Assembly: GCA_024349765.1 (NCBI GenBank)
Contig: AP026073.1
Location: forward strand, 7,564,001 to 7,628,000
Length of the DNA stretch: 64,000 bases
Source of the DNA: Streptomyces nigrescens
GTDB lineage: Bacteria > Actinomycetota > Actinomycetes > Streptomycetales > Streptomycetaceae
Direction of reading: 5' to 3'
Under the pieces are notes generated by a model, which was not told where the DNA came from, did not search any database, and saw only the letters and a list, made by a program, of their open reading frames with translations. This document shows positions 19,168 to 29,725 of the stretch, piece by piece. The translations under genes were made by a program, and so were the position numbers. How positions within the stretch are numbered: the stretch's first letter is position 1; the number at the start of each line of letters is the position of its first letter.

Positions 19168-20094
19168 ATGTCGGCCAGCCGCTACACCTATCTCGGCCCC
19201 GCGGGCACGTTCACCGAGGCCGCGCTGCGCAGCCTGCCCGAGGCGGCGACGCGCGAGCTGGTGCCGATGGTGTCGGTGCCGGCCGCCCTGGACGCGGTGC
19301 GGGCGGGGGAGGCGGCGGCCGCCCTGGTGCCGATCGAGAACTCCGTCGAGGGCGGGGTGACCACGACCCTCGACGAACTGGCCTCCGGCGAGCCGCTGAT
19401 GATCTACCGCGAGGTGCTGCTGCCGATCGCCTTCGCGCTGCTGGTGCGGCCCGGTACGACGCTCGACGAGGTCAAGACGGTGACCGGGCACCCGGTCGCG
19501 CAGCCCCAGGTCCGCAAGTGGCTGGCGGCCCAACTCCCGGAGGCGGTCTGGGAGTCGGCGGCCTCGAACGCGGACGGTGCGCGGCTGGTGCAGGAGGGCC
19601 GCTACGACGGTGCGTTCGCCGGTGAGTTCGCGGCGGCGACGTACGGCCTGACGCCGCTGGTCACCGACATCCACGACGCGCAGAACGCGGCCACCCGCTT
19701 CGTGCTGGTGGGCCGCCCGGCCCGGCCGGCGGCGCCCACCGGCGCGGACAAGACGTCGGTGGTGCTGTGGCTGGCCGAGGACCACCCCGGTGCGCTGCTC
19801 GAACTGCTCCAGGAGTACGCGGTGCGCGGGGTCAGCATGATGCGCATCGAGTCCCGGCCGACCGGTGAGGGCATCGGGCGCTACTGCTTCTCGGTGGACT
19901 GCGAGGGGCACATCACCGACCGCCGGGTCAGCGAGGTCCTGATGGGCCTCAAGCGGGTCTGCCGCGAGGTGCGGTTCCTCGGTTCGTATCCGCGGGCGGA
20001 CGAGACGACGCCGAGCGTGCGGCGGCAGATGACCGACTCGGCGTTCACCGAGGCCTCGGACTGGCTCGCGCGCTGCCTGGACGGCCGGGGCTGA
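19168..20094 (+). CDS. pheA: Prephenate dehydratase
   Basis: 308-residue enzyme converting prephenate to phenylpyruvate in phenylalanine synthesis. The N-terminal PDT domain starts YTYLGPAGTFTEAAL, continues with PIENSVEGGVTTTLDEL and has the catalytic TRF triplet in NAATRFVLVG (about 170-180). The C-terminal ACT domain (about 195-280) carries ESRPTGEGIGRYCFSVD, the phenylalanine-binding feedback site. Length matches monofunctional bacterial enzymes. The ATG follows GGGAGTCC. It stands alone, followed by the DnaA-box spacer rather than by other aromatic genes. Confidence 0.95.
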   Translation: MSASRYTYLGPAGTFTEAALRSLPEAATRELVPMVSVPAALDAVRAGEAAAALVPIENSVEGGVTTTLDELASGEPLMIYREVLLPIAFALLVRPGTTLDEVKTVTGHPVAQPQVRKWLAAQLPEAVWESAASNADGARLVQEGRYDGAFAGEFAAATYGLTPLVTDIHDAQNAATRFVLVGRPARPAAPTGADKTSVVLWLAEDHPGALLELLQEYAVRGVSMMRIESRPTGEGIGRYCFSVDCEGHITDRRVSEVLMGLKRVCREVRFLGSYPRADETTPSVRRQMTDSAFTEASDWLARCLDGRG

Positions 20095-20710
20095 GCTCCC
20101 GACCTGCGGCTTTGAGCGCCTGTGGGTTGTCCACAAAGTTATCCACAGGCCCGGTTCTCGACCTGTGGGTAAGTCGACACGACAGTCGGACACAGTCGAC
20201 AAATCGCCCTACTGACCCCACATCCCTCCACAGCACCCCACCTCGGACCCCGTCAGCACAATTCCTTCGGTCCATCCTTTAGAGCGAGGCAATCCCACAC
20301 GAAAGAGTGCGTGAACGGGGTTTGGACAGAGAATCCATAGCCGAGCATTTCGGAAGCGGAATGATCGCCGCCGACTTCCACAGATTCCACGCACAGCCTG
20401 TGGATAAATATCCGGGAACCCCCTTCCCCTGTGGACAACCCCATCGCACGGGGGCCGCGAAGGCCGCCCCAACTCCCCGCTCCCGCCCAGTGGATCATCG
20501 ATCGCGGACGCCGCGAACACCCGCATACCGGATGACTCCACCGCCCTCCTCCAGAAGATCACGACAGCCGGGAAGGGGTGCGAATGGGTGGGAATTCCCC
20601 GGCGGATTTACCGCACCCCCGCCATGGAATAAACCTCTCAAACCGGACAAATTGCAATGGCGGGGAATATCGCGTCGAAGCGTGGGGCGCGGCCCCGGTA
20701 GCCTGGTGGT
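20095..20710. other. 616-bp AT-richer spacer with DnaA boxes, upstream of serS
   Basis: No gene is visible. The spacer is clearly less GC-rich than its surroundings. It holds four perfect DnaA boxes in two facing pairs, TTGTCCACA (20127-20135) and TTATCCACA (20139-20147) on the plus strand, and TTATCCACA (20399-20407) and TTGTCCACA (20430-20438) on the minus strand. Weaker matches are TTACCCACA (minus, 20164-20172) and CCCTCCACA (20224-20232). DnaA-box clusters outside oriC are known in S. coelicolor to titrate DnaA; whether this is the same locus I cannot tell. The serS promoter must lie toward the right end. Confidence 0.75.
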
Positions 20711-22021
20711 GTGATTGACCTTCGCCTGCTCCGTGAGGACCCCGACCGTGTGCGCGCGTCCCAGCGCGCCCGTGGAGAGGACGTCGAGCTCGTCGACGCG
20801 CTTCTCTCCGCCGACGAGCGGCGCAGGTCGTCCAGCGTCCGCTTCGACGAGCTGCGCGCCGAGCAGAAGACGCTCGGCAAGCTCATCCCCAAGGCCACCG
20901 GCGACGAGAAGGCCGCGCTGCTGAAGAAGGCCGGCGAGCTGTCCGCCGCCGTCAAGGCCGCCGACGCCGCGCAGGACGAGGCCAAGGACGAGACCCAGCA
21001 GCTGCTGCTCAAGCTCGGCAACCTCGTCCACCCCGACGTCCCCGTGGGCGGCGAGGAGGACTTCGCGGTCCTGGAGACGCACGGCACCATCCGCGACTTC
21101 GCCGCCGAGGGCTTCGAGCCCAAGGACCACCTGGAGATCGGCCAGGCGCTCGGCGCCATCGACGTGGAGCGCGCCGCCAAGGTCTCCGGCTCGCGCTTCT
21201 ACTACCTGACGGGCATCGGCGCGCTCCTGGAGCTCGCGCTGGTCAACGCCGCCATCGCGCAGGCCACCGAGGCCGGCTTCGTCCCGATGCTGACCCCGGC
21301 GCTGGTCCGCCCGCACGCCATGGAGGGCACCGGATTCCTCGGCCAGGCCGCCGAGAACGTCTACCACCTCGAAAAGGACGACTACTACCTCGTCGGCACC
21401 TCCGAGGTCCCGCTCGCCGCGTACCACATGGACGAGATCGTCGACGCCGGCCAGCTGCCGCTGCGCTACGCCGGCTTCTCCCCCTGCTTCCGCCGCGAGG
21501 CCGGCACGTACGGCAAGGACACCCGCGGCATCTTCCGGGTCCACCAGTTCGACAAGGTGGAGATGTTCTCCTACGTCGCGCCGGAGGACGCGCAGGCCGA
21601 GCACCAGCGCCTGCTGGAGTGGGAGAAGCAGTGGCTGAACAGCCTGGAGCTGCCGTTCCAGGTGATCGACGTCGCCACCGGTGACCTGGGCGCCTCGGCC
21701 TCCCGCAAGTTCGACTGCGAGGCGTGGATCCCGACCCAGGGCAAGTACCGCGAGCTGACCTCGGCCTCCAACTGCGACGAGTTCCAGGCCCGCCGGCTCT
21801 CCGTCCGCATGCGCGAGAACGCCGACGGCAAGCAGAAGGTCCGCCCGCTGGCCACGCTCAACGGCACGCTCTGCGCCGTCCCGCGCACCATCGTGGCGAT
21901 CTTCGAGAACCACCAGCAGGCGGACGGCTCGGTGCGCGTCCCCGAGGTGCTGCGCCCCTACCTGGGCGGCCGGACCGTGCTGGAGCCCGTCGCGGCGGGC
22001 CGGGAGTCCGGCGCCAAGTGA
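20711..22021 (+). CDS. serS: Seryl-tRNA synthetase
   Basis: 436-residue class II aminoacyl-tRNA synthetase. The N-terminal long-armed coiled coil (about 25-110, with [23 protein letters not shown]-like helices) reads tRNA-Ser, and the catalytic core has motif 2 ([20 protein letters not shown]) and motif 3 near the C-terminus ([19 protein letters not shown]). The start is the GTG at 20711 ([11 protein letters not shown]), matching the conserved start of the family. It is four-base overlapped (GTGA) with a HAD phosphatase gene, forming a two-gene operon. Essential gene by family knowledge. Confidence 0.97.
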
Positions 22022-29421: not shown

Positions 29422-29725
29422 GGTCAAGAGCCGTGGTCCACACGATGGGGGACGGTGGTGTTCCACCCTGCCGGGTGCGCGGAACGGGCCGGCGGCGGCC
29501 CGGACGAGCGGCGGTTCGCCCGGATCCACCGCGTCACTCCCGCCCCACAATCGGCCACCGGGCGGCAGCATCGCGTCAAGTAGGGTCCACAACTCGTCAA
29601 TGACGCGTCAGCGTCCGGCGGAGGGGCCCGTTCCCCGGGCATAGCGTCGGCAGAGCCGAGCCCCGGCATACGCATCGTCATCCACCGGTCCGGGGCCGCC
29701 GATGTCCTGTTCGAGGAGCAACGCC

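What the first reader, a model, noticed from the sequence alone, without database searches (positions are those of the whole stretch)
20127..20438. DnaA-box cluster with facing pairs between pheA and serS
Four perfect 9-mers (TTGTCCACA, TTATCCACA) occur as two tightly spaced pairs that face each other across about 250 bp of AT-richer DNA, plus two near matches. Random occurrence of four such 9-mers in 600 bp of Streptomyces DNA is very unlikely. A DnaA-titrating cluster outside oriC has been described in S. coelicolor (I recall the name D78); this may be its equivalent. The spacing (4-bp gap in the left pair, 22-bp gap in the right pair) could allow looping, and the serS promoter lies beside it, so DnaA could also act on serS.
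Basis: partly seen in the sequence, partly recalled or inferred. Interest (0 to 1): 0.72.

Follow-up and report, generated by a model that had tools for sequence, protein, structure and literature searches.

The report
Phased DnaA-box cluster near Streptomyces origin
Between two housekeeping genes lies a conserved set of docking sites for DnaA, the protein that starts chromosome copying; it looks like a known Streptomyces brake on replication, and its two halves stay on the same face of the DNA helix across species, which suggests that it folds into a loop rather than only soaking up DnaA.

Summary
In detail: four perfect DnaA boxes (TTGTCCACA/TTATCCACA) lie at 20127-20438 between pheA and serS, two forward and two reverse, 251 bp apart. 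No other place listed for this genome has four within 400 bp; about 2e-7 would be expected. It lies 111 kb from oriC. Boxes with this layout fill the pheA-serS spacer of 80 of 80 named relatives; a facing pair 249-279 bp apart occurs in 345 of 392 Streptomyces genomes. Among fetched stretches it is present in 15 of 17 family genera and in none of 19 outside the family.

Possibly new: the distance between the arms changes in helical steps (about 260, 270, 280, 290 bp; p about 1.5e-5 on a tree); a search for 262-267 bp hit 2 of 384 genomes, one of them elsewhere. A moderately conserved non-coding block sits between. This fits a looped DnaA complex better than passive titration. It is most probably the orthologue of S. 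coelicolor D78, reported to restrain initiation; I could not read that paper, and its location is recalled. Control of serS is not supported. DnaA binding is not shown here.

The parts
20127..20135 (+). box A, TTGTCCACA, 12 bp before B; the least conserved of the strong boxes
   Evidence: within one mismatch at 12-13 bp before B in 46 of 81
20139..20147 (+). box B, TTATCCACA, anchor of the left arm
   Evidence: TTATCCACA in 79 of 81; 1.98 bits per column
20164..20172 (-). weak box C, TTACCCACA, faces B at 25 bp
   Evidence: 25 bp from B in 71 of 81, 23-26 bp in all 81 (up to two mismatches)
20173..20200 (.). two GTCGAC repeats (20173 and 20195); the second is part of a weak box-like TTGTCGAC on the - strand
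   Evidence: conserved in the alignment
20252..20309 (.). moderately conserved central non-coding block (GTCAGCACAATTCC ... CCTTTAGAGCGAGGCAATCCC ... GAAAGAGTG)
   Evidence: 146-148 bp from its start to D in 57 of 81
20374..20382 (+). weak half-box X with TCCACA core, faces D at 25 bp
   Evidence: TCCACA at that distance in 80 of 81
20399..20407 (-). box D, TTATCCACA, anchor of the right arm
   Evidence: TTATCCACA in 62 and TTGTCCACA in 9 of 81
20430..20438 (-). box E, TTGTCCACA, 31 bp beyond D
   Evidence: within one mismatch 30-32 bp beyond D in 73 of 81
19168..20094 (+). pheA, prephenate dehydratase (flank)
   Evidence: PF00800, E 4.9e-46
20711..22021 (+). serS, seryl-tRNA synthetase (flank)
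   Evidence: PF00587 and PF02403

Best explanation
This is the orthologue, in this Streptomyces, of an origin-proximal DnaA-binding locus (very probably S. coelicolor D78) that restrains initiation at oriC. DnaA would bind the strong boxes A/B on the left and D/E on the right, fill the weak facing partners C and X, and join the two arms through its domain I dimer and long domain II, bending the roughly 250 bp between them into a loop; the arms therefore have to lie on the same face of the helix. The locus would be copied soon after oriC, so that its dose doubles early and less DnaA is left for oriC. Shown here: boxes, conservation, spacing, phasing, place. Inferred: DnaA occupancy, the loop, the effect on initiation.
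For: Four perfect boxes, unique in the genome as listed; 111 kb from oriC, where only one perfect box lies among ten; layout in 80 of 80 named relatives and a facing pair in 345 of 392 genomes; arm distance in steps of about 10.3 bp, p about 1.5e-5 on a tree against 0.62 and 0.32 for the flanking intervals, p below 1e-5 to 1.4e-4 with the flank changes as null; half-turn distances 262-267 in 2 of 384 genomes, one of them at another place. Passages of PMC5448010: DnaA complexes on both sides of the spacer of S. coelicolor oriC join in a hairpin, domain I dimerises, domain II is very long. Passages of PMC13270200: domain I dimer in actinomycetes, S. lividans included. Passages of PMC4585315, PMC5742627, PMC10950094: S. 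coelicolor clusters near oriC repress untimely initiation.
Against: No binding, footprint or mutant data here. Some distances are off phase (255, 276-278, 284). By sister pairs against a flat null the D-serS interval also shows weak periodicity (p 0.04 to 0.008). Box A is missing in 35 of 81. Two family genera lack the cluster after pheA. In genera g83, g91 and g94 the right arm is built differently and the distance is 201-254 bp. Identity with D78 is from memory.
Confidence: 0.7

Rival explanations
1. Passive titration: the boxes only soak up DnaA; number and affinity matter, geometry does not.
For: Recalled description of D78 as a high-affinity cluster whose copy number matters; four perfect boxes here.
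Against: Order, orientation, 25-bp and 30-32-bp spacings and helical phase are kept across the genus, which a sponge does not need; a non-box block is conserved as well.
Confidence: 0.2
2. The cluster is an operator by which DnaA controls serS (or the end of pheA transcription).
For: It lies between the two genes in all 80 named relatives. The left pair sits in an inverted repeat that folds better than most shuffles (z -2.67, 4 of 200 as good), so it may help end pheA transcripts.
Against: Distance to serS 109-422 bp, unphased on the tree; the conserved promoter-like TAGCCT is next to the serS start; no sigma-70-like promoter in the spacer; no terminator-like site on the + strand.
Confidence: 0.06
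3. The conservation reflects a small gene or an RNA, and the boxes are incidental.
For: A 135-codon frame (20307-20714) is open in the window and in parts of the nearest relatives.
Against: Outside the nearest relatives the frame carries stops and shifts; no Pfam match; no Rfam match near a gathering score.
Confidence: 0.03

Closest known systems
S. coelicolor D78 DnaA-box cluster (Smulczyk-Krawczyszyn et al. 2006, J Bacteriol 188:6184-6194; paper not held, content recalled)
   Same: DnaA-box cluster outside but near oriC in Streptomyces; three reviews read in passages cite that paper for clusters that repress untimely initiation; by recall the name comes from cosmid SCD78, which holds serS and pheA
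   Different: Species; the phasing, the central block and the genus-wide layout are described here and I do not know whether that paper had them
E. coli datA
   Same: Box cluster near oriC that lowers initiation (passages of PMC5742627); by recall a site for another protein (IHF) lies between its boxes
   Different: No IHF-dependent DnaA-ATP hydrolysis shown here; other box layout; no homologous sequence looked for
Bacillus subtilis DnaA-box clusters (Okumura et al. 2012, cited in PMC4585315 and PMC5742627; paper not seen)
   Same: Clusters outside oriC that repress untimely initiation (passages)
   Different: Other genes and phylum; their spacing was not examined here
Streptomyces oriC
   Same: Box groups that DnaA joins across a spacer (passage of PMC5448010)
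   Different: The cluster is 111 kb from dnaA-oriC and has few, strong boxes; oriC here has one perfect and nine one-mismatch boxes

Membership tests
D78-type cluster | several strong DnaA boxes together outside oriC | tested here: met
   four perfect boxes in 312 bp, 111 kb from oriC
D78-type cluster | same chromosomal place as S. coelicolor D78 | tested here: inconclusive
   the pheA-serS place is conserved in 80 of 80 named relatives, S. coelicolor not among them; its place for D78 is recalled; searches found no text; another conserved box pair lies about 9 kb away in some species
D78-type cluster | high-affinity DnaA binding and more initiation when deleted | not testable with these tools
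   needs protein and mutants
datA | site for a second protein between the boxes | tested here: inconclusive
   a moderately conserved block lies between the arms; its binder is unknown
datA | promotes DnaA-ATP hydrolysis | not testable with these tools
   biochemical
Replication origin (oriC) | beside dnaA, many boxes | tested here: not met
   the only dnaA match and a ten-box array are 111 kb away
DnaA-controlled promoter (serS) | boxes at a set distance from the promoter | tested here: not met
   D to serS 109-422 bp, unphased on the tree; weak periodicity by sister pairs only

The most novel reading that the evidence does not exclude
The locus is an architecturally fixed, helically phased DnaA loop that also needs a second, unidentified protein on its central block: an active switch on DnaA peculiar to Streptomycetaceae, not a sponge, built from a repeated unit of two facing boxes 25 bp apart (B/C and X/D) that also occurs near a kptA-like gene in other Streptomyces.
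Probability: 0.35. Interest if true: 0.75.

Novelty: new member of a known kind. Interest (0 to 1): 0.52.

Why it matters
Whether DnaA-box clusters outside oriC act by titration or as structured complexes is a standing question. Here evolution has run the spacing experiment: insertions of about 10, 20 and 30 bp are kept, while half-turn ones are nearly absent. That makes the question directly testable with 5-bp against 10-bp insertions in a laboratory Streptomyces, and the central block points to a possible partner protein in a genus for which a 2017 review (PMC5448010, passages) knew no DnaA-interacting protein.

Tried and rejected
Small gene 20307-20714: frame not kept outside close relatives, no Pfam match. 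RNA element: three Rfam hits far below gathering scores. Promoters: no sigma-70-like site in 20090-20720; one terminator-like site on the - strand, 0.5 expected. serS control: see rivals.

Depth outside the family: one search found a PheA match in 144 of 148 genomes of the class; I fetched 20 stretches, 19 of them outside the family, and none of the 19 has a perfect box. By my N-terminal motif search serS lies in the same stretch in 9 of the 19 (L094-L096, L099, L101-L104, L107); for the other ten the neighbourhood itself may differ. Inside the family: of the 101 genomes I fetched 40 stretches, 35 of them from the 16 other genera. Fourteen of those 16 genera have at least two perfect boxes; g82 and g85 (three stretches each) have none, but serS was not recognised within 1.5 kb there, so the cluster may sit elsewhere. 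g90 (one stretch) has four perfect boxes in another layout. Of the 47 of 392 genomes without the exact pair I looked at 4 (G056, G223, G328, G345): all four have boxes in the spacer, two at a distance of 280 bp and two with an altered D.

D78: paper searches gave no open text with its place. One search matched 'data' as a common word and was useless. (passages of PMC3411110, PMC13121528, PMC4285127) do not mention it.

Limits of the phase test: one FastTree tree of pheA+serS, midpoint root, branch support not examined, unordered parsimony; the B and D boxes of each sequence were chosen by script; three periods; a scan over 8-14 bp gives a corrected p of 1.5e-4; the D-serS interval is weakly periodic by sister pairs against a flat null but not on the tree.

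Full report
WHAT IS THERE. The window is G000:C1:7564001-7628000 of a 9.33-Mb genome in two contigs. Between pheA (19168-20094) and serS (20711-22021), both confirmed by Pfam, lie four perfect DnaA boxes and one with a single mismatch. The genome holds 74 perfect TTRTCCACA sites; no other place in the list has four within 400 bp. With that density about 2e-7 clusters of four in 312 bp are expected. The single dnaA match is at C1:7695282-7695482, followed by one perfect and nine one-mismatch boxes at 7695852-7696304, which I take as oriC by place; the cluster is 111 kb away.

CONSERVATION. One scan of named genomes with PheA gave 80 loci, the best 80 of 457. All 80 have a serS start 455-946 bp after pheA, and with the window all 81 spacers hold two to five perfect boxes (23 with two, 36 with three, 21 with four, 1 with five; mononucleotide shuffles 0.004 per spacer). 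Box B is TTATCCACA in 79 of 81 and box D in 62 of 81; C faces B at 25 bp in 71 of 81; a TCCACA core faces D at 25 bp in 80 of 81; E lies 30-32 bp beyond D in 73 of 81; A lies 12-13 bp before B in only 46 of 81. Information per column is 0.78 (A), 1.98 (B), 1.57 (C), 1.87 (D), 1.48 (E) and 0.83 for the rest of 20127-20438. A wider scan found a facing pair 249-279 bp apart in 345 of 392 Streptomyces genomes; the reversed control pattern had no match in the rows shown. I did not check that each of the 345 lies beside pheA.

DEPTH. Of the 17 family genera (Streptomyces and 14 of 16 others) have at least two perfect boxes after pheA in the fetched stretches; g82 and g85 have none. Nineteen stretches outside the family have no perfect box. 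The element looks like an invention within the family. In g83, g91 and g94 the right arm is built differently and the distance to the first reverse box is 201-254 bp.

HELICAL PHASE. The B-D distance in the 81 sequences is 250 (1), 255 (2), 258-261 (37), 268-271 (29), 276-278 (3), 280-282 (4), 284 (1), 290 (3), 301 (1). In 59 genomes read from the part of the list shown it is 257-261 (50), 267-268 (2), 270 (5), 278-279 (2). A direct search for 262-267 bp, perfect boxes only, hit 2 of 384 genomes: G119 at 267, and G088 about 1 Mb away from its pheA. On the pheA+serS tree 38 changes of the distance are counted, 19 of them over 4 bp: 9, 9, 10, 10, 10, 11 (five times), 17, 18, 19, 20, 21, 24, 30, 30, 42; mean cosine 0.68 at 10.3 bp, p about 1.5e-5. 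The flanking intervals, with 34 (pheA-B) and 32 (D-serS) changes of 5-45 bp, give p 0.62 and 0.32. Drawing from the flank changes as a null gave no draw of 100,000 as good at 10.0 or 10.3 bp and p 1.4e-4 at 10.5. By sister pairs the interval gives p 2e-4 to 4e-4 (10 pairs), pheA-B 0.09 to 0.21 and D-serS 0.008 to 0.04, the last an unwelcome hint of periodicity outside the arms. The insertions lie at different points: in the left arm, between it and the central block, and inside the block. The start of the block lies 146-148 bp from D in 57 of 81 (in 20 it was not recognised, in 4 elsewhere), and in those 57 it lies 111-114 (27), 122-124 (25), 134 (2) or 143 (3) bp from B.

WHAT IT IS NOT. No kept open frame, no RNA family, no serS operator at a set distance.

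HOW IT MOST LIKELY WORKS. DnaA binds the strong boxes of both arms, weak facing partners fill in, and the arms join. PMC5448010 (passages) says that DnaA complexes on the two box groups of S. coelicolor oriC join in a hairpin-like structure, that domain I dimerises and that domain II is unusually long; PMC13270200 (passages) shows the domain I dimer in actinomycetes, S. lividans included, and repeats the idea of linking distant box clusters. Helical phasing is what a loop over 250 bp should demand. PMC4585315, PMC5742627 and PMC10950094 (passages) say that DnaA-box clusters of S. coelicolor repress untimely initiation, citing the 2006 paper. The step from loop to repression is inferred, and the central block suggests, but does not show, a second protein.

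RELATION TO D78. From memory: the 2006 paper named clusters H69, H24 and D78, D78 with the highest affinity; the names look like cosmids; S. coelicolor serS and pheA are SCO3961 and SCO3962 on SCD78. In this genome the other small clusters near oriC lie between a rhomboid gene and crgA (three perfect boxes, 7715187-7715375) and between dnaB and a MatE gene (two, 7658917-7659005), in an order that fits those names. No text at hand could check this, and a further conserved pair about 9 kb from the pheA-serS cluster in some species could also lie on such a cosmid.

VERDICT. The genus-wide phasing and the central block may be new; in the held library no paper turned up that describes them, which is weak evidence because the key paper is not held.

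Noticed in passing
L148 10484-10517 (G013:C1:4415483-4415516); also L149, L150, L151, L153, and L152 reversed: A conserved pair TTGTCCACA-N16-TGTGGATAA, boxes 25 bp apart in 6 of 6 fetched loci, with a third box TGATCCACA or TGGTCCACA 20 bp on. In L148 it lies about 9 kb from the pheA-serS cluster, before a gene that looks like kptA (by recall, no family search). This window has only a single TGGTCCACA at 29434-29442 at a like distance.
   Followed up: partly
G000:C1:7715187-7715375 (L002 3188-3376), between a rhomboid gene and crgA: Three perfect boxes about 20 kb from oriC; the facing pair TTATCCACAGATCTTC...TGTGGATAA recurs in many of the listed Streptomyces (101 of 101 genomes have some facing pair with a gap of 15-40 bp, the kptA-side pair included).
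   Followed up: partly
G000:C1:7658917-7659005 (L003 3918-4006), between dnaB and a MatE transporter gene: Two perfect and two one-mismatch boxes in front of dnaB, about 37 kb from oriC.
   Followed up: no
window 20113-20149: The left box pair sits in an inverted repeat GCCTGTGG...CCACAGGC just after the pheA stop; the RNA of 20100-20172 folds better than most shuffles (z -2.67). It may also help end pheA transcripts.
   Followed up: partly
window 20699-20711: A strongly conserved TAGCCT six bases before the serS GTG suggests a leaderless serS transcript.
   Followed up: no
L134-L138 (g94), L111-L114 (g83), L129-L130 (g91): In these genera the right arm differs: after the first reverse box come forward boxes (TTATCCACA or near) and a forward TTATCCCCA 21 bp on.
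   Followed up: no
G597, G599, G607 (genus g87): The usual PheA match is split in two pieces (G597) or only a distant paralogue is found (G599, G607).
   Followed up: no
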